Source of the DNA: Luteitalea pratensis
GTDB lineage: Bacteria > Acidobacteriota > Vicinamibacteria > Vicinamibacterales > Vicinamibacteraceae
Length of the DNA stretch: 64,000 bases
Direction of reading: 5' to 3'
NCBI RefSeq assembly: GCF_001618865.1
Contig: NZ_CP015136.1
Coordinates: forward strand, 7,351,001-7,415,000
In this document: positions 13,586 to 33,038 of the stretch, piece by piece
Layout of the letters: each line of letters begins with the position of its first letter
Numbering within the stretch: the first letter of the stretch is position 1
Program-made: the position numbers and the translations under genes
Notes under the pieces: model-generated
The model's input: only the letters and a program-made list of their open reading frames with translations
What the model was told of the DNA's origin: nothing
Database searches by the model: none

Positions 13586-14862
13586 TGGGGGCCGACATGC
13601 CGGTGGCTCCCTCGTCGGGCGCGCCATACTCCGACGAGGAGGCCGCGGCCGTCGGGTTCGTGCTGCGGCTCGGGCGTGCCCTTCACGGGTACGGCCTGTC
13701 GGCCGATGCCCTCGAGTACAACCTGCAGGCGATGTCGGATCGCCTCGGGCTCGAGGCCAACTTCTTCACCACGCCGACCTCGATCTTCGCGGCCTTTGGT
13801 CCGCCGGAACGCCAGCACACTCATCTCATTCGTGTCTTCCCTGGCGACGTCGACCTTGGCAAACTGGCGCGGCTCGACGCCGTGTCGCGTGACGTCGAGC
13901 AGCACCGGCTGACCGTGATCGAGGGGTCCCGCCGGATCGACGAGATCATCGCGCTGCCGCCCATCTCGCGCCCGGTCGTCCGTGTGCTTGGCTATGGAGT
14001 CGCGTCGGCGGTCGTGTGCCGCATCCTCGGCGGCGGCATCAACGAGGTCCTCGTCGCGGGGTTCGCCGGCCTGCTGACCGGCGCAATCTCGCTTGCATCC
14101 AACCGGTTGCCGCACGGCACGCACGTCTTCGAACTCGTCGCCGCCTTCGCCGTGTCGCTGGTCGTGACCTGCTTTGCCGCCATCAGCGACCTGCGGCTGT
14201 CGGTCCCGACGGCGACCCTCGGTGGCGTGATCGTGCTCGTTCCTGGCCTCACGGTGACGGTTGCGATGACCGAGCTGGCGCGACGACACCTCGCGGCCGG
14301 GACCGCTCGTCTCAGCGGTGCCTTCCTCGTGTTCGTGACCATCGCCTTCGGCGTGGCGGTGGGCGCCGAGGTCGCCGGCGCCCTGGTTGGCGAGGTGCGG
14401 TCGCTGCAGCCCAGGCGGTTGCCAGACTGGACGCTGACGCTGGCGGTGGCGGTGGCGCCGCTCGCGTTCGGGGTCCTGCTGCGGGCGCGGCTCCGTGACT
14501 TCCCGTGGCTGTGGTTGTCGAGCGCGATTGGTTACACCGCGGTGAGACTGGCTGCCCTCTCCTTCGGACCGGCGATGGCCGCCTCGATCGGCGCGCTGGT
14601 CGTCGGCGTCCTAGCCAACCTGTACGACAGGCGGGGGCTGGGGCCCGCGGCGGTTGCGCAAGTGCCTGGCGTATTGCTGCTCGTGCCCGGCAGCATCGGC
14701 TACCGCTCCCTCAGCAGCCTCCTCGATCAGAACGTCATCGTCGGCGTGACCGCGGCCTTCACGATGATCCTGACGGCCGTCGCGATCGCGGCTGGCCTGC
14801 TCGTGGCGAGCGTACTCGTCCCCACCCATCGACAGCGCGAAACCACCCGCCCGAGCGCGTAG
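13585..14862 (+). CDS. ThrE-type threonine/serine exporter
   Basis: This 425-aa protein has the two parts of the ThrE family: a soluble-plus-membrane N-terminal DUF1212-like domain (about 25-270, with NLQAMSDRLGLEANFFTTPT and VRVLGYGVASAVVCRILGGG) and a C-terminal membrane domain (about 285-410, with GPAAVAQVPGVLLLVPGSIG). Known members export threonine and serine by proton antiport. The ATG overlaps the upstream stop by one base (TGATG). A decayed second copy of its C-terminal half lies at 20664-21077. The membrane part has about ten hydrophobic segments. Confidence 0.88.
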   Translation: MGADMPVAPSSGAPYSDEEAAAVGFVLRLGRALHGYGLSADALEYNLQAMSDRLGLEANFFTTPTSIFAAFGPPERQHTHLIRVFPGDVDLGKLARLDAVSRDVEQHRLTVIEGSRRIDEIIALPPISRPVVRVLGYGVASAVVCRILGGGINEVLVAGFAGLLTGAISLASNRLPHGTHVFELVAAFAVSLVVTCFAAISDLRLSVPTATLGGVIVLVPGLTVTVAMTELARRHLAAGTARLSGAFLVFVTIAFGVAVGAEVAGALVGEVRSLQPRRLPDWTLTLAVAVAPLAFGVLLRARLRDFPWLWLSSAIGYTAVRLAALSFGPAMAASIGALVVGVLANLYDRRGLGPAAVAQVPGVLLLVPGSIGYRSLSSLLDQNVIVGVTAAFTMILTAVAIAAGLLVASVLVPTHRQRETTRPSA

Positions 14863-14942
14863 CGGCGGCGCCATCAGCCGGGCGTCAACGCCACCGCCGC
14901 GGGGTTGCTCATCGCCAGCGTCATTGCTCCCACCCGGCACGC

Positions 14943-15229
14943 GAATTCAGGCTCACTTCGCTGACATTCGCCACTCTGAAAACGCAATTCAGGCTCGCTT
15001 CGCTGACATCCAGAATTCACAATGCAGCGCGGGGCCTGCACTGTCGGATCTGCCGCACGGCTCCCAGGCCCCGAGCAATTCAGGCTCGCTTCGCTGATAT
15101 TCAGAATTCATAATGCAGCGCGGCGCGCGCACGGTCGGATCTACCGCACACCATTCAGCATTGCCAGGCCGGCCAGCCGGAGCTTCGAGCTGCACTCAAT
15201 TCTGAATTCTAAATTCTGAATTCTGAATG
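14943..15229. repeat. AATTCAG-family repeat block with 91-bp tandem unit (gene-free)
   Basis: CAATTCAGGCTCGCTTCGCT recurs at 14985 and 15076, each followed by a GACATCCAGAATTCACAATG-type core, GCAGCGCGG and a GTCGGATCTRCCGCAC segment, giving a 91-bp direct repeat. A diverged first unit starts at 14943, and an inverted heptad block (CAATTCTGAATTCTAAATTC) closes the region at 15196-15228. I see no gene. Confidence 0.85.
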
Positions 15230-15230
15230 A

Positions 15231-15288
15231 AATGCCGAACGACCAAGCAGCTGTCGGAATCCCGACAGCTGCGCTGTTGTTCGGCATT
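15231..15288. repeat. Nested perfect palindrome (cruciform/stem)
   Basis: The outer arms AATGCCGAAC (15231-15240) and GTTCGGCATT (15279-15288) enclose the inner arms GCAGCTGTCGG (15247-15257) and CCGACAGCTGC (15262-15272) with an AATC loop. It lies about 80 bp before the start of the hypothetical gene at 15369. It may be a transcription-factor dyad, a terminator-like hairpin without T-tract, or a mobile-element remnant. Confidence 0.85.
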
Positions 15289-15368
15289 CCTGTGCCGATT
15301 CCCTGACCATACCGCCCGGACTGCCCGGGTGAGCCCGACCCGGCTTGCGGTCAAGGAGAGGCACGTCC

Positions 15369-15686
15369 GTGCATACCGTGCTGTTCTATGTTCAACACGA
15401 CAACGAGGTGCCCATCCTGGTGCCCGTCGAAGTCGTCTCACGAGAACCCGATCGGCTGGGACACCTCAGGCTGGTCGAGCCTCTCAAGCTGAAGGACGCG
15501 GTGGTCGAGACGGTCCCGCTGACACGGTGCTACGAGTACGACCCGTACCTGGCGCATGCGGTCCAGGCGTACGCGGCGCAAGTCACGACGCTCGTGCGGG
15601 TGTCGCAGAGCGTGATCGAAGGATTGGCCATCCCGGTGACGGCACCGAAGGGTACGTACATGCAACCCGACGCCAGGGTCCACTGA
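15369..15686 (+). CDS. Hypothetical 105-aa protein
   Basis: I do not recognise this family. A GTG start is chosen because AAGGAGAGG lies 9 nt upstream. The protein is soluble, with an N-terminal beta-rich part (HTVLFYVQHDNEVPILVPVE) and a helical C-terminal half (AHAVQAYAAQVTTLVRVSQS). It has no signal peptide and no cysteine motif beyond one Cys. It lies alone between a large nested palindrome and the DUF4926/DUF6883 pair on the other strand. The good ribosome-binding site and third-position GC bias support it being real. Confidence 0.6.
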   Translation: MHTVLFYVQHDNEVPILVPVEVVSREPDRLGHLRLVEPLKLKDAVVETVPLTRCYEYDPYLAHAVQAYAAQVTTLVRVSQSVIEGLAIPVTAPKGTYMQPDARVH

Positions 15687-15767
15687 GCGGCCTGGGTGCG
15701 TGACAGGCGTTCGCCCGAGTCCGGCTGAGCCAGAACGGCGGGAATCGGGAGCGGCATCCCCGCGGAA

Positions 15768-16004
15768 TCAGGACGCCTTGGGAGCGGCTGACCGGACGGC
15801 CACCAGGTCATCGTCGGCGACGGCGCGCACATCCGCAGGGGCGAGAGTCACAAGCGCCTGAGTCCGCCCCGACGCAGCCACGAACTCGACAACGATCGCA
15901 CCTGGACCCGGGGCATCCACGACCGCCCCGAGGTCACCACGGCGCAGACCATGCGCCGGTAGATCGCAGTTCAGCACGACAACGTCTAGGAGGTTGGGCG
16001 TCAC
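15768..16004 (-). CDS. DUF4926-like protein
   Basis: This 78-aa protein has the small beta-barrel pattern of DUF4926: LLDVVVLNCDLPAHGLRRGD, LGAVVDAPGPGAIVVEFV, TLAPADVRAV. Such proteins are usually encoded next to DUF6883 or other small toxin-like genes. The GTG start overlaps the stop of the upstream DUF6883 gene by 3 nt (GTGA), so the two are translated together. It could be an immunity or antitoxin partner, but no function is established. Confidence 0.75.
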   Translation of the reverse strand: MTPNLLDVVVLNCDLPAHGLRRGDLGAVVDAPGPGAIVVEFVAASGRTQALVTLAPADVRAVADDDLVAVRSAAPKAS

Positions 16005-16342
16005 TTCGTCTCTCCGGGATATGCCGTCACGAACCGTGCGTGGTCCTCGCCTGTCCGCATGAACCACACACTGACCATCATCTCGGACGCACCTGTCGGT
16101 CCCCGTAGGATAGCGCGGATGCTGAAGCGCTGACCCTGCTCGTCCTGCACGCCGGCCTCCGCATCTTGGTGCAGGTGCTGTTCCCGCAAGGCCTCTTCGA
16201 GGACCTCCCAGTGGTCTGCCGTAAAGCCGAGCGCAGCGAAGAACCGAGCCTTGAAGCGTCCGATCGGGTGCGCCGTCGACAGGAGGTAGCCCTCCAGCTT
16301 GGTGCGGTCGATGAGTGCCCGCTCAGCATTCGGAAGACGCAC
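16001..16342 (-). CDS. DUF6883-like protein
   Basis: This ~113-aa protein contains RLPNAERALIDRTKLEGYLL and HPIGRFKARFFAALGF, the core of DUF6883, followed by a five-strand beta segment (QRFSIRAILRGPTGASEMMV). The family is unassigned; context with DUF4926 suggests a two-component, possibly toxin-immunity, unit. The start is taken at a GTG (16342) directly before the conserved motif; an upstream ATG at 16396 is in frame but lies deep inside the 3' end of the photolyase gene. Either way it overlaps that gene, so it probably follows it in one transcript. Confidence 0.7.
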   Translation of the reverse strand: MRLPNAERALIDRTKLEGYLLSTAHPIGRFKARFFAALGFTADHWEVLEEALREQHLHQDAEAGVQDEQGQRFSIRAILRGPTGASEMMVSVWFMRTGEDHARFVTAYPGETK

Positions 16343-17882
16343 GGCGCATTCTACCGTCGTCAGGATCGCAGGGGTCGAGGCCTGGCAACGGCGCATCCGG
16401 GCCGTAGGTGCGTAGGTAGTTCTTCAGCCGCAGTTTGCGAGCCGTGTTCTCGCTGCTCATGTAGCGGATGACGCCGAACACTTCGCGGCGGGGGGCCCAT
16501 GGGCGGTCGTACCGGCCGAGCACCCAGAAGATGCCGCTGTAGGAGTTCGGATCGCGTCCGTCCAGCGCGTACTTGTTGTTCAACTCGATCATCACCGCGA
16601 GCGCCTCGCGCGGGTCGGGCGTCCAGTGCAGGATCTTCTTGCCCCATAGCATCCGCAGGTAGTTGTGGATGCGCCCTTCGCGCACCAGTTGCCGCTGCGC
16701 AGCATTCCAGACCGGATCGTGGGTCTCGGCACGTTCGAACTGCTGCAACGTATACAGGTGCTCGCGGCGGTCGGCGGCATGGGCATCGAGCGAGGCACGC
16801 GCCCACTCGGGAAGCGACTCGTACCGGTCGTAATCAGCGCGATTGGCGGCGAAGTTGAACCCGAGTTCGCGCCACGTGATCAGCTCGTCGAGGAACGCCT
16901 CGACCTGCGGCGAGGCACCCCACCAACCCTCCCGGTTGCCGTTCCCTCGGGCGGCCAGCTGCCGCGACGTCCAGCCAGCGTGCGAGGCGACGTCGGAGAA
17001 GATGCGGTGGGCGGCGATGTGTCCGAAGTGCAGCCAGGGCGAGAGGCCGGACGCGCCGTCGCTATCGGGCTGATTACGCTCATCGTACCGGCCGAGGCCG
17101 TGCGCGATGAACTCCTCGAGACGGACGTGAGCGGCCGTGGACCCGCCGGTGAGCACGGGCGATGGCGCCACCGAGTGGTCGATGGGCAAGGTAGCCAGGC
17201 CTTCGGCTGTCGCTCGCAGAAGCGTGTCGTTCGCGGGCGGCCACCTTTCCAGCACCTCGGCTGCGACAGGGGCGGCGCGGCGCGGCAGCACCTCCAGCGG
17301 ACTCCGCACCGGGAACTGCATCAGCTGCGCCGGGAGCGCCTTCTGCACGTAGCGGCGGAACGCGTACGCGGTCGGGTAGACGGTGCTCGTCGCGCGCATC
17401 GGCAGCAGGCCGTTGCCATCCACGGCCTCGAGGCGGCAATCCAGGCGTGCCGCCGCGGCGGCGATCATGCGTGGCAGGAAGAAGGTCGGGTAGTCGTCGG
17501 TGACGACGACGGCCGCGTCTGCGGCAAGTCGCCGAAGCACGCCCTTGCCGGCGTCCGGCCGCGGCTCGACGTAGGCGAAGTACGTCACGCCCAGCCGTCC
17601 GGCGGCGGCCCGATGCTCGGACATGCCCTGCAGCACGAAGGCGTGCAGGCGATCGCTGGCCCAGGGGTAGCCGACGCGCAACGGCTCGAAGATCAGCAGC
17701 GGCAGGTCGAGCTCGCTGGCCCACCATGCCGCGTGTTGCAGGGCGAAGTTGTCCTCGAGCCGCCGGGCCGCGATCATCCAGTAGAGGACGTAGCGGGCGG
17801 CGCGGCGAGGGGGCGCGTCGCGTAAAACGCGGACGCGTGAAGCAGGCGCCGCCACGAGCAATTTAGGATTGTTCAGCGACAT
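16323..17882 (-). CDS. phrB: Deoxyribodipyrimidine photolyase, class II-like
   Basis: This 519-aa flavoenzyme repairs cyclobutane pyrimidine dimers using light. The N-terminal photolyase domain carries RYVLYWMIAARR, PLLIFEPLRVGYPWASDRLH and VVTDDYPTFFLPRM; the FAD-binding helical domain carries TWRELGFNFA, KILHWTPDPREALA and LNNKYALDGRDPNSYSGIFW, which are class II hallmarks. The first ~15 residues (MSLNNPKL...) are encoded by an intergenic repeat, so the original start may have been replaced. Codons for RVRVLRDAPPR are duplicated at ~18135-18190 and ~19460-19515 within long direct repeats. Downstream it overlaps the DUF6883 gene. Confidence 0.9.
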   Translation of the reverse strand: MSLNNPKLLVAAPASRVRVLRDAPPRRAARYVLYWMIAARRLEDNFALQHAAWWASELDLPLLIFEPLRVGYPWASDRLHAFVLQGMSEHRAAAGRLGVTYFAYVEPRPDAGKGVLRRLAADAAVVVTDDYPTFFLPRMIAAAAARLDCRLEAVDGNGLLPMRATSTVYPTAYAFRRYVQKALPAQLMQFPVRSPLEVLPRRAAPVAAEVLERWPPANDTLLRATAEGLATLPIDHSVAPSPVLTGGSTAAHVRLEEFIAHGLGRYDERNQPDSDGASGLSPWLHFGHIAAHRIFSDVASHAGWTSRQLAARGNGNREGWWGASPQVEAFLDELITWRELGFNFAANRADYDRYESLPEWARASLDAHAADRREHLYTLQQFERAETHDPVWNAAQRQLVREGRIHNYLRMLWGKKILHWTPDPREALAVMIELNNKYALDGRDPNSYSGIFWVLGRYDRPWAPRREVFGVIRYMSSENTARKLRLKNYLRTYGPDAPLPGLDPCDPDDGRMRRASSEC

Positions 17883-18075
17883 TCAAAATTCAGAATGAAG
17901 GGTTCACTCGGGGCGCCCTGAGCGCGTCGGGCAGTCGGCGATCTGAATGCAGGACGCAACGCGGAAGCCTGGCGTTGCCGGCTTCGCGCTGCATTCTGAA
18001 TTCTGAATGTCGTGGCGGGGACCTGAATTGACTTTGTGGTGGCGGTGCAGGGCCCCGCGCTTCATTCTGACTTTT
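17795..18075. repeat. Long direct repeat, copy 1 (overlaps phrB 5' end)
   Basis: This is the most diverged of three copies. It covers the first ~30 codons of phrB, the motif CAATTTAGGATTGTTCAGCG, TTCACTCGGGGCGCCCTGAG, GGCAGTCGGCGATCTGAATG, and a heptad block. Copies 2 and 3 are at 18123-18446 and 19447-19770. Confidence 0.8.
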
Positions 18076-18122
18076 GAAGGTCGCGGTAGAGACCTGAATT
18101 CCCGTGAGAATGCTGTGCGGCA

Positions 18123-18446
18123 GCCTGGCGGTTGGCGGGCGGCGCGAGGCGGCGCGTCACGTAGAACGCGGACGCGTGAGGCGGGGGCCGCCACAGGCAA
18201 TTTAGGATTGTTCAGCGACATTCAAAATTCAGAATGAGGGTTCACTCGGGGCGCCCTGAGCCGTCGGGGGCAGTCGGCGATCTGAATGAAGGCCGCAACG
18301 CGGACGCCTGGCGTTGCGCGTCCCGCGCTCAATTCTGAATTCTAAATGACGCCGCAAAGCCCTGAATTGCTAATGAATGCCGTGGCAGGGACCTGCATTG
18401 CCTTTGTGGTGGCGTTGCCGGCCCCGCGCGGCATTGTGAATTCTAA
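18123..18446. repeat. Long direct repeat, copy 2
   Basis: This 324-bp unit is nearly identical to copy 3. It starts GCCTGGCGGTTGGCGGGCGG, contains the duplicated phrB 5' codons (minus strand), CAATTTAGGATTGTTCAGCG, and ends in ATTGTGAATTCTAA. Together with copy 3 it brackets the two-gene nucleotidyltransferase cassette. Confidence 0.85.
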
Positions 18447-18500
18447 ATGACGTGGCAGAGTCCTGAATTCCCGTCAGTCGCAGGAAGGGTAGGATCAATC

Positions 18501-18758
18501 ATGGAGTCCCGACGATCGGCGCTCGAAGGGTGGACGCCCGAGCAGTTGGCCCTGGGCCGAGCCTGGGCTGCCACCTGGCGTGACGCAGGCCCGCGACTCG
18601 AGGCGATCCGACGACAGGAACTGCGAGCCCTCGATGCATTCGCCGCGATCGCACTCCTCTGCGGGGCAGCCGACTACCAACTGCCGCCGCGCGCGCCTGC
18701 GCCGACATCCGGGCTCCTTGAACAGCAGCGGCTGTTCATGAGGCTGCGGCCGCTGTGA
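18501..18758 (+). CDS. Hypothetical protein, possible antitoxin partner of nucleotidyltransferase
   Basis: This 85-aa protein is mostly helical (TPEQLALGRAWAATWRDAGP, RLEAIRRQELRALDAFAAIA) with a Pro-rich C-terminus. I do not recognise a family. The ATG has AAGGGTAGGA upstream. Its stop overlaps the GTG of the following nucleotidyltransferase (GTGA), the arrangement typical of toxin-antitoxin operons in which the first small gene neutralises the second product. That role is inferred from position only. The cassette lies between two near-identical direct repeats. Confidence 0.65.
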   Translation: MESRRSALEGWTPEQLALGRAWAATWRDAGPRLEAIRRQELRALDAFAAIALLCGAADYQLPPRAPAPTSGLLEQQRLFMRLRPL

Positions 18759-19318
18759 ACGCGCTGATTCGCGCGGCAGCCGACTTACAGGCGGTGTGCG
18801 AGGCGCAGCAATGGCGCTTCTGCTTCATCGGCGGACTCGCCGTTCTCCGATGGGGAGAGCCGCGCGAAACGATCGACGTCGACCTGACGCTCATCACAGG
18901 CTTCGGCCGCGAGCGAGAGTTCGTTTCTGTTCTGCTGGATGCATTCCGGCCACGCATCGATGATGCCGGAGCGTTTGCCGAGCGCAACCGTGTCCTGTTG
19001 CTGCGCGCCGCGTCCGGGGTCGGACTCGACATCGCGCTTGGGGGTCTTCCCTTCGAGGAGTTGGCGGTCGAGCGGTCCACCCGATTCACCTACCCGCCCG
19101 ACGTCTCGTTGCGGACCTGTTCGGCGGAGGATCTGATCGTACTCAAGGCCTTCGCCGACCGTCCGAAGGACTGGGTGGACATCGAGGGCGTGATCGTCCG
19201 TCAGTCCCGACAGCTGGACTGGCCGTACGTGTGCGCGCAGCTGGCTCCCCTGGCAGAGTTGAAAGAAGAGCCTGAACTGCTCGATCGACTGGAACAGACA
19301 CGCGCACGCATCGATTGA
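18755..19318 (+). CDS. AbiEii-like nucleotidyltransferase (putative toxin)
   Basis: This 187-aa protein of the nucleotidyltransferase superfamily shows the fold signature FCFIGGLAVLRWGEPRETID, where GG and the following VDLTLI provide the catalytic Gly-Gly and Asp-x-Asp; LDIALGG gives a third acidic position and CSAEDLIVLKAFADRPKDW matches AbiEii/MenT-like proteins. AbiEii-type enzymes are toxins of abortive-infection or type IV toxin-antitoxin systems and can modify tRNA. It is coupled to the small upstream gene. Both genes sit inside direct repeats that duplicated the neighbouring photolyase 5' end. Confidence 0.78.
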   Translation: MNALIRAAADLQAVCEAQQWRFCFIGGLAVLRWGEPRETIDVDLTLITGFGREREFVSVLLDAFRPRIDDAGAFAERNRVLLLRAASGVGLDIALGGLPFEELAVERSTRFTYPPDVSLRTCSAEDLIVLKAFADRPKDWVDIEGVIVRQSRQLDWPYVCAQLAPLAELKEEPELLDRLEQTRARID

Positions 19319-19446
19319 CGCCTCGGCACCATCAAAAATTGAGGATTCTTCACGGAAATTCAAATTCAAAGTGAAGGGTCTAGTCGGGCGCTCAAGCGCT
19401 TCGGTGCAGCCGGCGATCTGAATGGAACGAAGGACGCAACGCGGGA
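19319..19446. repeat. Diverged AATTCAG-family repeat after the cassette
   Basis: AAAAATTGAGGATTCTTCAC, AAATTCAAATTCAAAGTGAA and AGCCGGCGATCTGAATGGAA show a diverged partial copy of the same element that forms the long direct repeats. No gene is seen. Confidence 0.7.
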
Positions 19447-19770
19447 GCCTGGCGGTTGGCGGGCGGCGCGAGGCGGCGCGTCACGTAGAACGCGGACGCG
19501 TGAGGCGGCGCCGCCACAAGCAATTTAGGATTGTTCAGCGACATTCAAAATTCAGAATGAAGGGTTCACTCGGGGCGCCCTGAGCCGTCGGGGGCAGTCG
19601 GCGATCTGAATGAAGGCCGCAACGCGGACGCCTGGCGTTGCGCGTCCCGCGCTCAATTCTGAATTCTAAATGACGCCGCAAAACCCTGAATTGCTAATGA
19701 ATGCCGGGGCAGGGACCTGAATTGACTTCGTGGTGGCGGTGCCGGCCCCGCACTTCATTGTGAATTCTAA
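19447..19770. repeat. Long direct repeat, copy 3
   Basis: This 324-bp unit matches copy 2 (18123-18446) nearly base for base, including the phrB 5' codons and the terminal ATTGTGAATTCTAA. It is followed to about 19900 by further heptad blocks (TTCATTCTGAATTTTGAATG) without a gene. Confidence 0.85.
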
Positions 19771-19956
19771 CTGACGCTGAAGAGTCCTCAATTGTGTGCG
19801 GCAGCAAGGCGGTGGCGTGAAGGTGTTCTGCGGGAGCCTGGCGATGTGCGCCCCGCGCTTCATTCTGAATTTTGAATGACGCTGAAGGGTCCTAAATTGA
19901 GTGCGACGGCCGGCGTGGTTCGTCCCCTGTGCAGGACGCTTCCGGCCGGAGGCGCC

Positions 19957-19972
19957 TGGCACGCGCCTTGAA
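19957..19972 (+). promoter_or_regulatory. Candidate sigma54 promoter upstream of lipoprotein
   Basis: TGGCACGCGCCTTGAA has a perfect TGGCACG -24 box, N4 spacing and TTGAA in place of TTGCW at -12. It lies about 215 bp before the lipoprotein start. The remaining leader (19973-20185) holds no gene I can support. The site may be recognised with the PrsR-type activator encoded at 24.7-26.0 kb. Confidence 0.45.
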
Positions 19973-20185
19973 CTAGGGAGCGGCGGGACTGCGCCGAGTC
20001 AACGGGATGCGAAAACCGTAAGGCAGGCGCTGGCATCGCCGCATTCCGCGTTTGTGGGCGGCTCGCGTGCAGTCTCTGCAGGACCTCGGGGGAAGGTTGT
20101 CATGGGTGCGCAGGGGGCGTATCCAGGGCAGCATTCCCCCGATTCCTTTCCGGGTTCCAGCTCCTCCGGAGCGAAGGAGGCACTC

Positions 20186-20542
20186 ATGTCCCGCTACTCC
20201 CGACCTGTTCTCGCGGTGCTGCTGGCGCTGGGCCTTGCCGGCTGCGCCATGCGTGCCAAGACCATTGCCGACATCCGCAACGACCCGGGCCACTACGACC
20301 ATCGCCAGGTCGAGGTGACCGGCCGCGTGACGAGTGCCTACAGCATTCCGCTCGTGCCGTACGGGCTCTACAAGATTGACGATGGTTCGGCGGAGATCAC
20401 GGTGCTGTCGCAACAGCGCGGCACGCCGTCGAAGGGTGCCCTGGTCAAGGTGCGAGGGGACGTACGCCAGGTTGCGAACTTCGGGGTGACGTCGGTGGGC
20501 CTGCACATCGAGGAAAAGGACAGGGACATCGTGCGGAGGTGA
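20186..20542 (+). CDS. Small OB-fold-like lipoprotein
   Basis: This 118-aa lipoprotein has signal MSRYSRPVLAVLLALGLAGC with a lipobox LAGC, then a compact beta-rich domain: VEVTGRVTSAYSI, YGLYKIDDGSAEITVL, GALVKVRGDVRQVANF, VGLHIEEKDR. The pattern resembles OB-fold nucleic-acid or stress-type domains, but the function is unknown. The start has AAGGAGG 6 nt upstream. A decayed fragment of a homologue (VRGDVREVGQFNATAVGLHI) lies beside prsR, so this gene family is linked to the exosortase module. A sigma54-like site lies upstream. Confidence 0.75.
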   Translation: MSRYSRPVLAVLLALGLAGCAMRAKTIADIRNDPGHYDHRQVEVTGRVTSAYSIPLVPYGLYKIDDGSAEITVLSQQRGTPSKGALVKVRGDVRQVANFGVTSVGLHIEEKDRDIVRR

Positions 20543-20663
20543 TACCGGACCTTCAGGGAGGCTCCTCGACATTCAGTGGCTGGAAGGAACCGGCCGCTAC
20601 GCGTGCTGCTGGAGAAGGACCCGGACAACCCCTCATTCCATCGCCATCTGGTCCTTCGTTACG

Positions 20664-21077
20664 CTGCAGCCGCTGCGATTGCCTGAATGGACGGCGATGC
20701 TGGCGGCGGTCGCGCCGCTCGCATTCGGCATCCTGCTGCGCGCTCGTCTGCCCGACTTCCCGTGGCTCTGGCTGTCGAGCACGATCGACTAGACCGCCGT
20801 GCGGATCGCCGCTCTCTCGTTCGGACCGGCTCTGGCCGCCTGGGTCGGCGCGCTGGTGGTGGGTATCCTCGCGAACCTGTACGGCACGCGCGGGCTCGGT
20901 CCCGCGGCGGTCGCGCAGGTGCCTGGTGTGCTGCTCCTCGTCCCCGGCAGCATCCGCTACCGGTAGCTGGCAAGTCTGCTGGACCAGAATGTGGTGGTAG
21001 GTGCCACTGCCGGCTTCACCATGATCCTGACCGCTGTTGCGATTGACGGCGGCCTGGTGCCAACGGCGCGCAAGTAG
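20664..21077 (+). pseudogene. Decayed C-terminal half of a ThrE-type exporter
   Basis: Translation gives LRLPEWTAMLAAVAPLAFGI, DFPWLWLSSTID, stop, TAVRIAALSFGPALAAWVGA, GPAAVAQVPGVLLLVPGSIR, YR-stop, LASLLDQNVVVGATAGFTMI. Residue for residue this follows the C-terminal half of the intact gene at 13585-14862. There are two in-frame stop codons, no N-terminal half and no start. It is a paralogue remnant rather than an assembly error, because many third-position and conservative changes separate the copies. Confidence 0.9.
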
Positions 21078-21137
21078 GTCGAACGTCAACCCCTGGCGCG
21101 GCCCCGTGCACGAGGGGAGCGATCTGTCCGGCCCAAC

Positions 21138-21172
21138 TAAAAAGGGCGCGGGGCATGATGCCCCGCGCCCTT
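21138..21172 (-). terminator. Rho-independent terminator of the PEP-CTERM gene
   Basis: A perfect 14-bp stem (AAGGGCGCGGGGCA / TGCCCCGCGCCCTT, 21142-21155 and 21159-21172) with a 3-nt loop is followed on the minus strand by a run of T (TTTTTAG). It lies 22 bp after the stop codon of the PEP-CTERM protein and isolates it as a single-gene transcript. Confidence 0.9.
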
Positions 21173-21193
21173 CAAAGCACACCTTGCCTGGAC

Positions 21194-21925
21194 TCAGCCC
21201 TTGCCGAATCGGCGGCGCATCATGCCGATGCCCAGAAGGGCGGAACCGAGCAGCGCAACCGTCGTTCCGCCATCCGGGACCGAATCAAACGGGTTGTCCG
21301 GCGTAGACGGGCCCGACGCATCCACAAGCCCTGTGTACCCCGTGACGCCGCTCAGAATGTCGACCGCAAAATAGGCCTGGACATCGCCCCCGACGGACTT
21401 CTGTGCGAAGTCATCCGTAGTCAGGCCGGCGGCGAGGATGTCGATGGTAAACGGACCAGCCACTCCACCGCCGCCCCCGGTTCCGCACTGTTTGCAGGTC
21501 AGTGCGTATTCGAAGGTACCGAAACCATTAAATCCAAGGCTTGCGGCAGAAGTGTTGAACAGGGACAAAGAGGTCGACGCAGGAGCTCCCTCCGTGAGTG
21601 TAGCGTTCTGATCGACCAGAGGAGCGGGATTAAGGTCGAGGTTGAATGCGATGCTGGCGTCAGGGGGGGCGCCAGGAGGGAATCCCGTATCAACAAGCAA
21701 GCTGCCGTCGGCAAGCTCCAATGTAAAGCGTACACCGTTGCCGCCGGCGATGTCCGTCAATGTGATAACCCCGAAAAGGTGGCCATTCCCTCCGCAGCCA
21801 TTGGTGCAATGGTCACTGGTCAAGGCGTAATAGACGGTATTCGCCGCGACGGGCCGCTCAGCGATGGCGAACAGGCCCGCTGCTGTGAGCGCCGCGAGCA
21901 GCGTGGACTTCTTGAACAAGGTCAT
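21194..21925 (-). CDS. PEP-CTERM (VPDGG-type) sorting-signal protein
   Basis: This 243-aa exported protein has signal MTLFKKSTLLAALTAAGLFA with AERPVAA|N cleavage. The central part is a beta-rich, low-charge domain with paired Cys (DHCTNGCGG; CKQCGTGGGGG). At the C-terminus, VPDGGTTVALLGSALLGIG then MMRRRFGKG forms the tripartite PEP-CTERM signal: VPDGG motif, hydrophobic helix, basic tail. Such proteins are cleaved by an exosortase and exported into the EPS matrix; the exosortase is encoded at 28172-29107. The ATG has AAAGGAAA upstream and a sigma54-like promoter 42-57 bp upstream. A strong terminator follows. It is the only complete sorting substrate seen. Confidence 0.9.
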   Translation of the reverse strand: MTLFKKSTLLAALTAAGLFAIAERPVAANTVYYALTSDHCTNGCGGNGHLFGVITLTDIAGGNGVRFTLELADGSLLVDTGFPPGAPPDASIAFNLDLNPAPLVDQNATLTEGAPASTSLSLFNTSAASLGFNGFGTFEYALTCKQCGTGGGGGVAGPFTIDILAAGLTTDDFAQKSVGGDVQAYFAVDILSGVTGYTGLVDASGPSTPDNPFDSVPDGGTTVALLGSALLGIGMMRRRFGKG

Positions 21926-21966
21926 AGTTTTTTCCTTTAGACGGGTGTGCTTGCGTGAAGGGTAGA

Positions 21967-21982
21967 AGCAAATCATGGGCCA
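21967..21982 (-). promoter_or_regulatory. Candidate sigma54 promoter of the PEP-CTERM gene
   Basis: The minus strand reads TGGCCCATGATTTGCT: TGGC at -24, N4 spacing and a full TTGCT at -12. Predicted transcription would start near 21955, about 30 nt before the ATG. PrsR-type activators are known to drive PEP-CTERM genes from sigma54 promoters, and prsR is encoded 3 kb away. Confidence 0.6.
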
Positions 21983-22141
21983 CGGTGTCGTGCGAACGCA
22001 TTGCGGTTCGAAATTGGTACTTATCCCCTGCATTCTGTGTACTTTATGCGGTGAAGCTAGATTGTCACTAGTGAGGGAGCTCTTATAGCCCTGGCAAGAT
22101 CGTAAAGTCTGCCGACGCGTTGGGGCTCTCTCGTCCGGCCC

Positions 22142-24412
22142 CTATTTGGAAACCATCGCCAAGGTCTGCTTCGCCTCTTCGCCGCCAATTCTGGGGTCGA
22201 GCTTCAATGCTCGTTCCAAAGCCTGGCGAGACTTTTCTTTTTCACCGAGCTTGGCGTAGGTCAACCCCAGGTGGTACAAAACCTCGGCCGAGTCCGGGCG
22301 CTTCCTGAGACTTTCTTCGAGCGGCTTAGCTGCCAAGGACGGCAAGGCTTTCTTGTAATAGACCCAACCCAGCGTATCGTCCACACTCGGGTCGTCGGGC
22401 ATTTGCTGCTTTGCCGACGTCGCGAGCTGGAGCGCGAGGTCTAGATTCGTCCCCTGTTCAGCGTAAATGAAGGCGAGGTTGTTTGCCGCGAGCGGTGCCT
22501 TCCCCGGACCGTTCACCGCCGTTTCGTACGCTTTTCTGGCTTGGTCCCGCTTGCCCTGCCCTTCGAGCAGCATCCCGACCATCGTCCGCGCATGAACGGC
22601 CGCCGGGTCGCGATTGGCGATGACCTCGAACTCGGCGCGCGCTTGGTCGACGCGGCGCTGTTTGAAATAGAGCTCGGCCAACAAGGTGTAGCCCAGCGTA
22701 AAACGAGGATCCGCGGATACCGCGCGACGAAGCGCCTGTTCGGCCTTTGCTTCATCGCCCGCCGCGATGTGAGATCGTGCCAACAGCACCAACAAGGGAC
22801 CACTGGTTGGCTGTCTGGCAATCTCCGGCTCGAGTCGGGCAATCGCCGACGCAGGATTCTTCGCCGCAAGATCCAGATACGTAAGCCCGCGGAGCGCCTC
22901 GTACAATCCCGGCGCGAGTTCGAGTGCACGCTCGAACGAGCTCCTCGCGGCCGCCGCGTCCCCCTTGCTTGCATGGAGCGTTGCGTTAACGGCATGCACC
23001 ACGCCGGCGGTTGGCGCCCCCTTGAGCAGCGTTGCGACCTCGGCCTCGGCGCGAGCCGTATTGCCTGCCGCGATGAGGCTACGTGCCAGCGCCACCCGCG
23101 CCTGCAAATTCGCGGGCTCAGCCTGGCGGGCCTGCTCTGCGTATTGCAAAGCCCCTGACTTGTCGCCGGTGATCAGGCTCAGCCTGGAGAGCTCCAACTG
23201 TGCGGCAGTCACGCGCGGGTTAAGTCGCAACACCTCGCTGAACGACTTGATGGCGTCAGCAACTTCCCCCCGCCTGTCATGGACGGTGGCTAACGTGAAC
23301 TGGGCTGCCACCGATTGCCGATCGGCGGCAACGGCGGCCTTGGCACGATCAAGTGCCTCGTCGAGCTTGCCCTCCGTCGTCAGCCACCGCGCCTTCATAG
23401 CGAGCGCGCCAGCGTGATTCGGCGCCCGCCCCAAGACGTTGTCGAGACGCTTGTGGGCTTCCGCCACGCGATTGTCGGCGTACTCCAGCGCGGCAAGTCT
23501 CGCCTCGGCCTCAACAAACGTCGCGCGGTTGGACGAGAGCGGGGTCAGAACATTTGCGGCGTCCTGCCTGCGGCCGACGCTTGTGTAATAGTCGGCCAGT
23601 TGAAAACGGGCCGCCGGCGTCTTCGTACTCTCGGCCAGGACCTTGAGAGGTTGCTCTGCCTCCCTGACCCGCCGTGTGGCCACGTACAGCATGCCGAGCA
23701 TTCGGTTGGCCACAAGATTTTTCGGGTCCAGCGTGAGGGCCTCCTTGAGAATGCCCTCCGCTTCCGACGTCCGTTCAGTCGCCCAGAGGAAGTTGGCGAG
23801 CGCCACCTTGGCGTTCACCGATGACGGGGCCAACTCCACAGCATGACGAAATGCCGCTTCGGCCTCCTTGGACTGGCCGCCCTGCATGCGCACGGCGCCG
23901 AGATTTAGGAACGCCGGGCTGCTGTCGGGGCTGACCTTGAGTGCCTCTTCGATCTGCCCAATCGCGCCCTCCGGGTCTCGAAGGGACGCCATCGCCGCCG
24001 CGTGGAGGAGCAGCGCCTCGACGTCTTTCGGGTTCTTAGCGAGCAGCGCCTTCGCGCGTGCCTGCGCGTCCCCGAAACGCTGACCGATCAACAAGATCTG
24101 CGTCGCCTTGATTTGTGCTTCTCGATTGTCGGGGAGGACGTCGGCTGCGCGCACGTACTCAGGGGCAGCGGCACGCATGTTTTCCAGTCGCTCGTACGTC
24201 TGCGCCAGCTTAAACCGGGCCTCGCCAAACTTGGGATCGATCTTGAGAGCGCTGGCGTATTCGATCACCGCAAACTCATCCCGCTTTTCGGCCGCGTACT
24301 GGTCGCCCCGTTCCAGGTGTTGCACTTTTTGCTTTTCCGGGTTGCTGCAGGACGACGCCAGCAGCGCCGCAAGAATCAGCACGCCGAAGCGACGGCTTCG
24401 AGTGTTGCGCAT
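22142..24412 (-). CDS. prsT: PrsT-like TPR-repeat lipoprotein of the PEP-CTERM system
   Basis: This 756-aa lipoprotein begins MRNTRSRRFGVLILAALLAS with lipobox ASSC, followed by about 18-20 TPR units over nearly the whole length (for example FAVIEYASALKIDPKFGEAR, KEAEAAFRHAVELAPSSVNA, GYTLLAELYFKQRRVDQARA). It matches the architecture of PrsT, the TPR lipoprotein of exosortase/EPS loci, thought to scaffold polysaccharide or protein export in the periplasm. AAGGAGATGGAAG precedes the ATG. It is separated from prsR by about 280 bp holding a decayed lipoprotein fragment, so prsT probably has its own promoter. No sigma54 motif was seen. Confidence 0.87.
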   Translation of the reverse strand: MRNTRSRRFGVLILAALLASSCSNPEKQKVQHLERGDQYAAEKRDEFAVIEYASALKIDPKFGEARFKLAQTYERLENMRAAAPEYVRAADVLPDNREAQIKATQILLIGQRFGDAQARAKALLAKNPKDVEALLLHAAAMASLRDPEGAIGQIEEALKVSPDSSPAFLNLGAVRMQGGQSKEAEAAFRHAVELAPSSVNAKVALANFLWATERTSEAEGILKEALTLDPKNLVANRMLGMLYVATRRVREAEQPLKVLAESTKTPAARFQLADYYTSVGRRQDAANVLTPLSSNRATFVEAEARLAALEYADNRVAEAHKRLDNVLGRAPNHAGALAMKARWLTTEGKLDEALDRAKAAVAADRQSVAAQFTLATVHDRRGEVADAIKSFSEVLRLNPRVTAAQLELSRLSLITGDKSGALQYAEQARQAEPANLQARVALARSLIAAGNTARAEAEVATLLKGAPTAGVVHAVNATLHASKGDAAAARSSFERALELAPGLYEALRGLTYLDLAAKNPASAIARLEPEIARQPTSGPLLVLLARSHIAAGDEAKAEQALRRAVSADPRFTLGYTLLAELYFKQRRVDQARAEFEVIANRDPAAVHARTMVGMLLEGQGKRDQARKAYETAVNGPGKAPLAANNLAFIYAEQGTNLDLALQLATSAKQQMPDDPSVDDTLGWVYYKKALPSLAAKPLEESLRKRPDSAEVLYHLGLTYAKLGEKEKSRQALERALKLDPRIGGEEAKQTLAMVSK

Positions 24413-31096: not shown

Positions 31097-32147
31097 GTGC
31101 TCACCGAAGATGAACGTGCGGACTGGAACGCTACGGGCGCGCCGGTAGCGGCCGAGCCGACTTGGCGCGTCGTGCCCGCGCCCTGCTGCTCTTGGCCGAC
31201 CATCATTCTTACGCCGAGGTGACCGCCGCCACCGGCTGGACCTCGGCGACGATTGTCAAGTGGAAGGCGCGCTTCCTGGCTGACCGCTTGCGCGGCGTGT
31301 GGGGACCGCATCAAGGCTCGCGCCCGACCACCGCCGTCGAGGCACGCGTGCTCGCGTGGACGCACAAGACGCCGCCCGATGGCGCCACGCACTGGTCGAC
31401 CCGGACGCTGGCCACTCGGCTCAAGCTCTCGCACACCATGGTGGCGCGCATCTGGAAGCGCGCAGGTTTGCAACCGCATCGCCTGGAGCGCTACATGCGC
31501 TCGACCGACCCCGATTTCGAGACCAAGGCCGGCGACTTCATCGGCTTGTACTTGCCGCCGCCGCTGCACGCCGTCGTGTTCTGTGTCGACGAGAAAACCG
31601 CGATTCAAGCGTTGGACCGTCGCGACCCCATCCTGCCGCTGTGGCCAGGTCGCGCGGAGCGACACGACTGAGTACGTCCGGCACCGGCAGGCTCTCGCCG
31701 AATGCGGCCCTCAACACCGACACCGGCGAAGTGATCGGGAAGACCGCAGAGCGGCTCACCAGCGCGGAATCCATCGCCTTTCTCAGCACTGTGGTGGCCA
31801 GTCGGCCGGCAGGCCGCGAGATCCACATCATCGCGGACAATCCGTCGGCTCATAAGACCAAGCAGGTGGCGGCATTCCTCGAGGCGCATCCGTCGGTCCA
31901 GATCCACTTCACCCCGACCTACAGCTCGTGGCTGAACCAGGTCGAGCTGTGGTTCAGCAAGATCGCGCGCGACCTGCTCGCCCGCGGTATCCTTACCTCG
32001 ACGACCGACCTTGCCCGCAAGATTCGGCGATACACCGATCGCTACAACCGCGTGGCGAAGCCGGTCCGCCGGACCTATTTCGCGACCCCGCGCGGCGCAT
32101 CGCGTGATACTTCAGGTTCAGTTGATACAGCCAATTGGTTTAGTTAG
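31097..32147 (+). pseudogene. IS630-type transposase, frameshifted
   Basis: The reading frame switches at least twice. VLTEDERAD starts at 31097. After a one-base loss near 31116 the next frame reads LERYGRAGSGRADLARRARA through FCVDEKTAIQALDRR to about 31670. A second shift leads to LNTDTGEVIGKTAERL, EIHIIADNPSAHKTKQVAAF and FTPTYSSWLNQVELWFSKIA, ending at 32147. The HTH and the DDE regions (CVDEK, IIADN, LNQVE) are recognisable. IS630 elements sometimes use programmed -1 shifting, but two shifts argue for decay. Clear ends were not found. Confidence 0.85.
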
Positions 32148-32228
32148 CCGACGGCTGAGGCCACATAAGGTTCGTTCGCAGACCCACCCTCCCAACGACA
32201 CAACGCCGGCCCGCCTCCCCAGAGAATG

Positions 32229-33038
32229 CTATGGTGTATTGAAATTGGCAATACTGGCTTCATTGTTTATTCCCTTCTGAATAAAGACCATATTGTGGTA
32301 AAAAAATATCCCCACAATATGCTTATCAAAATAGTTTGGTTCGTAACTTCTTAACATGTATTCTTCATGATTGAGTCCATCAGTCAAACTTTTTAGAAAT
32401 CCCATCGCTGTATCAGAACGATTGAAATCCTCGCTTGATCCACCATGAGATGGCCAATATGAAGTTTGAAGGTCTTCTATTATGTATATACCGTTTTCGC
32501 TTAACTTAGGAAATAAGTAATTGAATGTGTAAATGATATGTTCATTAATATGACTACCGTCATCAATAATTACATCAACTTTTCGTATTTCTTGCACGAC
32601 CTTTTCTAAAAAATTTTCGTCTATTTGGGAACCTTGAAATGTCTTAATCCGACGTTCTTCGTGACAGGTTTTATCATAAATATCAATTCCGAATATAAGA
32701 GACTTTGGGAAATAGGTGCGCCACATTCTCAATGAAGCTCCTCCTGCTTTAGGGTTATCGTAACCACCTATTCCTATTTCTAGGACTTTGAGCTTCTCTT
32801 TCCGTCGATGAGCTAAGTGAGTTTCATAATGTGGTACATACCGGTGGAAGCCCCATTTATCACAAATATAGAGTGTGGCTAAGATTTTTAAATTTGAACC
32901 AAAGAAGATTCGATAGACAAAACCCTGGAGCCAACGAAACCTAAAAGCTTGAAACTCTTTAAGTTTTGCTTTTTGCTCCCTAGTAAGTGATTTTCTAAGA
33001 CTTTGTATATTTGACAAGTATTGATCAAGATTCAACAT
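32229..33038 (-). CDS. AT-rich class I SAM-dependent methyltransferase (foreign)
   Basis: This 269-aa protein has methyltransferase motif I KVLEIGIGGYDNPKAGGASL, an acidic strand-2 end FGIDIYDK, VDVIIDDGSHINEHII and GIYIIEDLQTSYWPS. The pattern resembles macrolide/sugar O-methyltransferases (macrocin/MycE-like), so it probably methylates a sugar hydroxyl on a glycan or secondary metabolite. Composition is strikingly AT-rich (about 35-40% GC by eye) and Lys/Asn/Ile-rich, unlike every neighbour. It lies between a broken IS630 and a broken ISAzo13-type transposase, which fits recent horizontal arrival. It faces the same way as the EPS cluster and could modify its product. Confidence 0.85.
   Translation of the reverse strand: MLNLDQYLSNIQSLRKSLTREQKAKLKEFQAFRFRWLQGFVYRIFFGSNLKILATLYICDKWGFHRYVPHYETHLAHRRKEKLKVLEIGIGGYDNPKAGGASLRMWRTYFPKSLIFGIDIYDKTCHEERRIKTFQGSQIDENFLEKVVQEIRKVDVIIDDGSHINEHIIYTFNYLFPKLSENGIYIIEDLQTSYWPSHGGSSEDFNRSDTAMGFLKSLTDGLNHEEYMLRSYEPNYFDKHIVGIFFYHNMVFIQKGINNEASIANFNTP

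What the first reader, a model, noticed from the sequence alone, without database searches (positions are those of the whole stretch)
18123..19770. Two-gene nucleotidyltransferase cassette bracketed by near-identical 324-bp direct repeats
Copies at 18123-18446 and 19447-19770 have equal length and almost the same sequence and enclose the coupled small ORF plus the AbiEii-like gene. This looks like a mobile or excisable cassette, possibly a toxin-antitoxin unit spread by homologous recombination between repeats. I know of no described element with this layout. Seen: repeats and gene overlap. Known: AbiEii/MenT toxins are paired with small partners. Inference: mobility and toxicity.
Basis: partly seen in the sequence, partly recalled or inferred. 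Interest (0 to 1): 0.75.

Follow-up and report, generated by a model that had tools for sequence, protein, structure and literature searches.

The report
Portable toxin-antitoxin-like pair between unrelated repeats
A soil bacterium carries a compact two-gene unit that looks like a growth-stopping enzyme and its small inhibitor; the same unit turns up in several bacterial phyla, and the long repeats around it here look like local DNA duplications rather than its means of moving.

Summary
The repeats are real: 353 bp, 94.6% identical (18117-18469, 19441-19793), with a third, 79% copy upstream. They are local duplications of the start of the neighbouring photolyase-like gene plus a dispersed hairpin repeat, and are not part of the cassette: 0 of 27 testable copies of the gene pair elsewhere carry them. 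The enclosed module (about 18473-19318) looks self-contained: a -10-like box 5 nt before the start codon, an 85-aa partner with no family match, and a 187-aa nucleotidyltransferase overlapping it by 4 nt. The enzyme is closest in sequence and fold to MenT1, the MenAT1 toxin, with its four catalytic residues invariant. The pair recurs in Acidobacteriota, Planctomycetota, Verrucomicrobiota and Elusimicrobiota. One congener lacks it at this site (51 bp against 1,991 bp), another has a different gene there, and two others carry it, whole or broken, beside other genes. In 9 of 30 loci the enzyme is broken with the partner still detected; in none is a whole enzyme without the partner. Best reading: a mobile MenAT1-like toxin-antitoxin module with a new antitoxin family, at a site crowded with local repeats. 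Toxicity and neutralisation are inferred; no moving machinery was found.

The parts
16323..17882 (-). photolyase/cryptochrome-like gene (phr); its 5' end is duplicated in the repeats and its first codons lie in the repeat arm
   Evidence: PF00875 E 9.5e-7; duplicate of residues 1-29 at 90% inside copy 1
17793..18073 (.). third, more diverged copy of the repeat (R0), overlapping the phr start
   Evidence: 79% to copy 1 over repeat positions 13-320; alignment
18117..18469 (.). repeat copy R1
   Evidence: 94.6% identical to R2 over 354 columns
18490..18495 (+). putative -10 box TAGGAT, 5 nt before the partner start codon (leaderless-type start)
   Evidence: sequence; TANNNT starting 10-14 nt before the start in 15 of 28 module loci against 0 of 28 enzyme starts and 9 of 301 other ORFs of 200 aa or more
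18501..18758 (+). partner gene, 85 aa, candidate antitoxin; conserved C-terminal SGLVEQQRWF-type motif; predicted long helix 13-43 plus short helices
   Evidence: alignment of 28; model pLDDT 85.6, pTM 0.42; no Pfam, NCBIfam or PADLOC match
18755..19318 (+). AbiEii/MenT1-like nucleotidyltransferase, 187 aa, candidate toxin
   Evidence: PF08843 32.2 bits, PF19502 25.2 bits; MenT1 E 4.6e-8, Foldseek E 3e-9, Z 20.6
18473..19308 (+). extent of DNA similarity with the module copy in congener G003, that is the unit without repeats
   Evidence: 81% over 836 bp; the flanks of the G003 copy match other places of this genome
19337..19454 (.). degenerate part-copy of the repeat directly after the module
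   Evidence: 75%
19441..19793 (.). repeat copy R2
19860..19911 (-). further repeat arm in inverted orientation
   Evidence: 85% to repeat positions 64-115; repeat-model hit
20186..20542 (+). small lipoprotein-like gene, right-hand border of the site in relatives (no Pfam match; label is my reading)
   Evidence: orthologous DNA next to phr in G004 and beyond a different gene in G001

Best explanation
The unit at 18473-19318 is a mobile, self-contained toxin-antitoxin module of the MenAT1 type. A -10 element placed a few bases before the start codon would drive a leaderless mRNA; the 85-aa partner is made first and the nucleotidyltransferase is translated by coupling through a 4-nt overlap. The partner, mainly one long helix plus a conserved C-terminal tail, would hold the enzyme inactive as MenA1 does MenT1; freed enzyme would add nucleotides to RNA (most likely tRNA 3' ends) and stop growth. 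The module entered a gap between phr and a lipoprotein-like gene that holds a different gene in a relative. The flanking direct repeats arose separately, by local duplication of the phr 5' end with a dispersed hairpin repeat; they could delete the module by homologous recombination but did not bring it. Shown: anatomy, conservation, linkage, a relative's site without the module, repeat make-up. Inferred: toxicity, neutralisation, target, promoter use, and the order of events.
For: Pairing: 34 of 41 partner-profile hits in 120 genomes (this one and 119 relatives) are followed on the same strand within 150 bp by the enzyme; genes overlap by 4 or 8 nt in 26 of 28 loci. Enzyme: MenT1 is the only PDB sequence match at E <= 0.001 and the best structural match, Z 20.6 against at most 12.8 for MenT3; T39, D41, K131, D142 align with MenT1 T39, D41, K137, D152 and are invariant in 22 of 22 (roles from passages of PMC10435456 and PMC11375011). 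Polarity of decay: 9 of 30 loci keep the partner with a broken enzyme, 0 of 30 have a whole enzyme without a partner. Mobility: site without the module in G004, other gene in G001, other neighbourhoods in G003 and G002. Repeats.
Against: No toxicity or binding data. The partner has no detectable sequence link to MenA1 and no Foldseek match. 3' deletions could hit the second gene more often for reasons other than toxicity, and draft assemblies may hold errors. The enzyme tree follows lineage lines in part (four of five Planctomycetota together; the Vicinamibacterales family f8 in one clade), so the wide spread may be old. The strict promoter test was passed by 15 of 28 loci only. At about 45% identity some enzymes have no detected partner (G070:C57, G021:C18), and 7 of 41 partner hits have no enzyme beside them on that strand. 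Loss in G004 rather than gain here is not excluded.
Confidence: 0.72

Rival explanations
1. The 324-bp repeats are the ends of the mobile element: the cassette excises and inserts by recombination between them.
For: Repeats 94.6% identical over 353 bp with a 122-bp identical run, enough in principle for homologous recombination; the G004 site keeps one degenerate repeat unit (model hit G004:C85:4014-4065).
Against: These repeats are absent around 27 of 27 other testable copies of the pair; DNA similarity with the G003 copy ends at the module; the full-length repeat occurs twice in the genome, with one 79% copy, all here, and holds phr sequence; besides the two genes the interval has only overlapping or antisense ORFs, which were not scanned against family libraries.
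Confidence: 0.12
2. The enzyme is not a toxin but a housekeeping or antibiotic-type nucleotidyltransferase, and the partner is its regulatory or folding subunit.
For: The fold is shared with ANT(2'')-Ia and other small-molecule transferases, Z 12.7.
Against: MenT1 stands about 8 Z units above these; patchy distribution; partner kept while the enzyme is repeatedly broken; small partner upstream as in MenAT1.
Confidence: 0.15
3. The two genes are reversed in role: the nucleotidyltransferase is the antitoxin acting on the partner, as in HEPN/MNT pairs (MntA modifies HepT; PMC7641770, seen as a search listing and the start of its abstract only).
For: Nucleotidyltransferase antitoxins exist (same listing).
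Against: The enzyme resembles MenT1 over its whole length; the partner has no Pfam match, HEPN included, and its predicted shape is mainly one long helix (low pTM); decay hits the enzyme, not the partner.
Confidence: 0.06

Closest known systems
MenAT1 (MenA1-MenT1, rv0078B-rv0078A; PDB 8AN4, 8AN5, 8RR5)
   Same: Small antitoxin gene upstream of a ~190-aa single-domain nucleotidyltransferase; same fold over nearly the whole length (Z 20.6, 177 residues, 2.4 A); the four catalytic residues, including the auto-phosphorylated T39, are conserved; the partner has a 31-residue predicted helix, MenA1 a 32-residue one.
   Different: Only about 20% identity; partner (85 aa) shows no sequence match to MenA1 and carries its own conserved SGLVEQQRWF-type tail; different phyla; here the genes overlap and the promoter looks leaderless.
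AbiE (AbiEi-AbiEii) and MenAT3/MenAT4
   Same: DUF1814/AbiEii nucleotidyltransferase with a partner gene.
   Different: MenA3 and MenA4 belong to COG5340 (PMC10435456, passages) and the AbiE antitoxin is a two-domain protein (PMC7319586, start of abstract in a listing); the structural match to MenT3 and MenT4 is weaker (Z 12.8 and 10.1).
Dispersed hairpin repeats of the REP/heptamer kind (comparison from memory)
   Same: The flanking repeats contain a 58-nt arm found 35 times in the genome; one arm pair folds as a hairpin (z -3.7).
   Different: 31 of the 35 copies sit in one 114-kb sector; the full 324-bp unit is unique to this site; an Rfam search of 14000-24000 gave only three sub-threshold hits, none on the repeats.

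Membership tests
MenAT / AbiE nucleotidyltransferase toxin-antitoxin systems | DUF1814/AbiEii nucleotidyltransferase with conserved catalytic residues | tested here: met
   PF08843 32.2 bits, cut-off 22.5; T39, D41, K131, D142 invariant in 22 of 22
MenAT / AbiE nucleotidyltransferase toxin-antitoxin systems | two-gene operon, partner first | tested here: met
   34 of 41 partner hits directly followed by the enzyme; 26 of 28 loci overlap by 4 or 8 nt
MenAT / AbiE nucleotidyltransferase toxin-antitoxin systems | enzyme stops growth, partner relieves it | not testable with these tools
   needs expression; indirect: enzyme broken with partner retained in 9 of 30 loci
AbiE sensu stricto | antitoxin is an AbiEi/COG5340 two-domain protein | tested here: not met
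   partner is 85 aa with no Pfam, NCBIfam or PADLOC match
MenAT1 subgroup | toxin closest to MenT1 | tested here: met
MenAT1 subgroup | antitoxin homologous to MenA1 | tested here: inconclusive
   profile search of PDB sequences at E <= 10 did not return MenA1 (that its chain is in that library was not checked); Foldseek gave nothing; similar size and long helix only
Transposon or terminal-repeat cassette | terminal repeats travel with the cassette | tested here: not met
   0 of 27 testable copies elsewhere have these repeats; one has an unrelated 93-bp direct repeat
Transposon or terminal-repeat cassette | own transposase or integrase | tested here: not met
   the two genes fill the module; 19 neighbouring proteins of 10 other loci gave no transposase or integrase match at E <= 0.001, 8 of the 19 having no Pfam match at all
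Integron gene cassette | attC site and integron integrase | not tested
   no attC model was run; no integrase among the 19 neighbours scanned

The most novel reading that the evidence does not exclude
A family of naked selfish units about 850 bp long, consisting only of a -10 box, an antitoxin of a new family and a MenT1-like toxin, moves between chromosomal sites and phyla without any recombinase, terminal repeats, plasmid or phage of its own; its partner would inhibit the enzyme by triggering phosphorylation of T39, through a protein unrelated in sequence to MenA1.
Probability: 0.25. Interest if true: 0.65.

Novelty: new variant of a known kind. Interest (0 to 1): 0.45.

Why it matters
The best-studied enzymes of this closest group come from Mycobacterium tuberculosis. 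A separate lineage in soil and water bacteria, with an antitoxin that looks unrelated in sequence, would show that the same kind of enzyme has been harnessed by different small inhibitors, and gives a safer system to ask which parts of the MenA1 mechanism are general. It also gives a clear case where striking direct repeats around a gene pair are probably not what moves it.

Tried and rejected
Repeats as the mobile ends: rejected as the main explanation. An origin/terminus-specific repeat family: dnaA lies at the start of the contig and this genome's copies sit at 7.33-7.44 Mb and 3.53-3.59 Mb, but in congener G004 the repeat-bearing pieces map widely (of 43 compared: 5 to the origin-side core, 4 to its flanks, 6 to the terminus zone, 7 elsewhere, 21 unmapped; 20 control pieces, four of them under 2 kb: 1 terminus, 1 origin flank, 18 unmapped; only 1.42 Mb of this genome was compared), so dropped. 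One search was an earlier, smaller version of that test (5 of 44 repeat-bearing pieces and 0 of 20 controls mapped to the origin-side sector). Counts from the repeat model are lower bounds, since only 150 candidates per genome were scored.

Vehicle: no relative of the enzyme was confirmed among IMG/VR viral contigs (8 pattern matches, none confirmed), PLSDB plasmids or INPHARED phages. The direct repeat found around one Planctomycete copy (L071, 93 bp at 89%) falls on pieces of a PEP-CTERM-type gene end scattered over that locus and is unrelated in sequence (the PEP-CTERM label is my reading). In one search two entries for the G001 insert were in a wrong frame and gave nothing; the P-loop reading of that 381-aa ORF is mine, from its sequence. 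Literature searches for the partner motif and for DUF6036 found no paper; AbiEii with Planctomycetes gave four listings, none about such a pair by title; leaderless, toxin-antitoxin, horizontal transfer, Planctomycetes likewise, ten of 42 listed; MenT1 homologues gave the two papers used. Passages of PMC5900883 did not confirm the organism. (heptameric repeats) was seen as a listing only and not used.

Limits of the counts. Repeat test: 28 different loci outside this one had enzyme and partner both detected; L033 has no sequence after the enzyme, leaving 27, some with flanks shorter than 600 bp (L070, L078, L080, L045). Decay count: the 30 loci have enzyme identity of at least 59% over the matched part and are not cut by a contig end; one is the window's own. 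Dropped before the count: L033, L035 and L073 (cut), enzymes at 25-57% identity, L276 (partner open, only a distant enzyme on the other strand), L047 (enzyme split, no partner detected). G079, with an apparently short enzyme, and the cut pieces of G055 were not fetched further. For L079 the partner was seen by tblastn only, and its partner and that of L080 are only 32-37% alike. Partner start codons used were chosen by me.

Full report
Genome and setting. The window is G000:C1:7351001-7415000 of a single-contig 7,480,314-base genome with dnaA at its first bases. From memory the size fits Luteitalea pratensis (Acidobacteriota, subdivision 6); no call confirmed the name.

The observation. Copy 1 and copy 2 of the repeat are real and 96% identical over 324 bp; the similarity extends to 353 bp at 94.6%, with a 122-bp identical run. 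A third copy, 79%, lies directly upstream and runs into the photolyase-like gene. Copy 1 contains a duplicate of the first 29 codons of that gene at 90%; copy 2 has the same DNA with a one-base gap. Part-copies follow the module at 19337-19454 and 19860-19911. The full-length unit occurs nowhere else in the genome, but a 58-nt arm inside it, modelled from 14 examples, has 35 hits: 31 between 7.328 and 7.442 Mb and 4 at 3.53 and 3.59 Mb. One arm pair folds better than any of 200 shuffles (z -3.7). Among 13 genomes searched with that model, this genome has 35 hits, G004 114, G003 2, and ten have none; these are lower bounds. The bare core pattern occurs in 8 of 60 genomes, five of them in other families of the order.

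What the repeats are. They are a local multiplication of a dispersed hairpin repeat together with the start of the neighbouring gene. The repeat arm itself encodes the first codons of the photolyase-like protein; in G001, where the model found no repeats, the N-terminus differs (my reading). The module sits between two of the copies. Elsewhere, 28 different loci have enzyme and partner both detected; 27 have sequence on both sides of the pair. None of the 27 has these repeats or the ATTCTGA-type core in its flanks: 25 showed no match between the two flanks (up to 600 bp each) at E <= 0.01, L024 a 43-bp inverted match, and L071 an unrelated 93-bp direct repeat (places fetched twice counted once).

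The site in relatives. In G004 the matched blocks around the gap are 51 bp apart where 1,991 bp separate them here (L113 2550-4083 matches 16395-17929, 4135-4747 matches 19921-20535). One degenerate repeat unit lies at the edge of that gap (L050; model hit G004:C85:4014-4065). In the single-contig genome G001 the same gap (L114 13208-14907) holds a different gene, a 381-aa P-loop protein. So the gap holds different cargo in different species; gain here is the simplest reading, loss in G004 is not excluded.

The module. A search of 120 genomes (this one and 119 relatives) finds a relative of the enzyme in 67, of which 13, counting this genome, have a copy of at least 65% identity over nearly the whole length. 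In the genus, G000 and G003 have it whole, G002 broken, and G001 and G004 gave no match. A scan of one genome per species finds it in Acidobacteriota, Planctomycetota, Verrucomicrobiota and Elusimicrobiota at 59-84% over most of the protein. The partner profile finds 41 places in 37 of 120 genomes; 34 of 41 are directly followed by the enzyme on the same strand. DNA similarity with the nearest copy, in G003, covers 18473-19308 and stops there. The nearest flanks of the G003 copy match this genome at 3.50 Mb (left, 265 bp, 73%) and 2.27 Mb (right, 489 bp, 74%), with 1.20 and 5.64 Mb further left; those of the broken G002 copy match 3.95 Mb (70%) and 7.20 Mb (83%). So three genomes of one genus hold it in three neighbourhoods; some of these matches may be paralogues, and G003 is a draft of 830 contigs. 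Nineteen proteins neighbouring ten other copies include dehydrogenase, desaturase, LolA-like, histidine kinase and cytochrome families; 8 of 19 have no Pfam match, and none matches a transposase or integrase.

Expression. In 15 of 28 module loci a TANNNT box starts 10-14 nt before the partner start codon, against 0 of 28 for the enzyme starts and 9 of 301 other ORFs of 200 aa or more in the same loci; three of the other 13 (L032, L069, L074) have such a box at 16-18 nt. This suggests a leaderless or nearly leaderless transcript whose -10 box travels with the module. In 26 of 28 loci the two genes overlap, 10 by 4 nt and 16 by 8 nt.

The proteins. The enzyme model (pLDDT 93.8) matches MenT1 best: Foldseek E 3e-9, Z 20.6 over 177 residues at 2.4 A, against at most 12.8 for MenT3 and 12.7 for the aminoglycoside transferase ANT(2''). 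By profile, MenT1 is the only PDB sequence at E <= 0.001. The columns of T39, D41, K131 and D142, invariant in 22 of 22, align with T39, D41, K137 and D152 of MenT1, allowing a one-residue offset between chain index and published numbering (my inference). In MenT1, T39 is phosphorylated in the presence of MenA1, and D41A and K137A are inactive (PMC11375011, passages). MenA1 is 68 aa, upstream, and a version with only its 32-residue helix still works when overexpressed; it binds across two enzyme protomers (PMC10435456, passages). The partner here is 85 aa, predicted as a 31-residue helix with short helices and a conserved tail (pTM only 0.42, so the arrangement is not reliable). It has no match in Pfam, NCBIfam or PADLOC, none in PDB sequences beyond chance and none by Foldseek. 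The enzyme itself passes the Pfam cut-offs of AbiEii and DUF6036, has no NCBIfam match and a weak PADLOC AbiEii match (17.7 bits).

Decay pattern. Among 30 loci with an enzyme of at least 59% identity not cut by a contig end, 21 have both genes whole (this one included) and 9 have the partner but a broken enzyme (L045, L075, L078, L079, L080, L081, and G002, G056, G072), among them one that lost roughly residues 26-159 in frame; none has a whole enzyme without a partner. This is what a toxin and its antitoxin would leave behind, though simple 3' deletion or errors in draft assemblies cannot be excluded. Three of the nine (G002, G056, G072) were picked out through the partner profile, which favours that class, although their enzyme stubs had also been hit; the other six came from searches with the enzyme alone. 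L080 lies near a contig end, but its frame stops before it.

Phylogeny. In a tree of 22 enzymes the window's copy pairs with G003 (98/97) inside a clade that mixes four families (f1, f2, f5, f6). Four of five Planctomycetota copies group together, and family f8 forms a clade with one further Acidobacteriota copy, so lineage structure is partly kept; mobility is clearest within the genus and from patchiness, less so between phyla.

Verdict. It is best filed as a new variant of MenAT1-type systems, pending tests of toxicity and neutralisation.

Noticed in passing
G000:C1:7328242-7442028 (window -22.8 kb to +91 kb): 31 of 35 genome hits of a 58-nt hairpin repeat arm (core ATTCAGAATTCAGAAT) lie in one 114-kb sector; in G004 the family is spread over many contigs, and G001 and G002 gave none. 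Why this genome has it mainly in one sector is unexplained.
   Followed up: partly
window 17859-17882: The first codons of the photolyase-like gene (MSLNNPKL) are read from the repeat arm, so a dispersed repeat appears to have supplied a start codon; G001 has a different N-terminus.
   Followed up: partly
window 15768-16396 (-): A small DUF6883/DUF4926 gene pair near the site, another candidate two-gene unit.
   Followed up: no
window 20662-20994: A diverged duplicate of part of the ThrE-like exporter gene (14402-14737, 75-78%) stands downstream of the lipoprotein-like gene, a second local duplication in the same neighbourhood.
   Followed up: no
window 31299-33038: A 1-kb stretch of 41% GC (32001-33000) holds a methyltransferase-like ORF (32229-33038) beside a transposase-like ORF; probably an import (labels are my reading, not searched).
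   Followed up: no
G004:C46:8783-9674 and G004:C207:2186-2559: Tandem arrays of the same repeat arm with periods of about 79-84 and 119 bp, in both orientations in C46.
   Followed up: no
L278:1846-2004 (G072:C83): An enzyme gene that lost its catalytic middle (roughly residues 26-159) in frame while the partner stayed open.
   Followed up: partly
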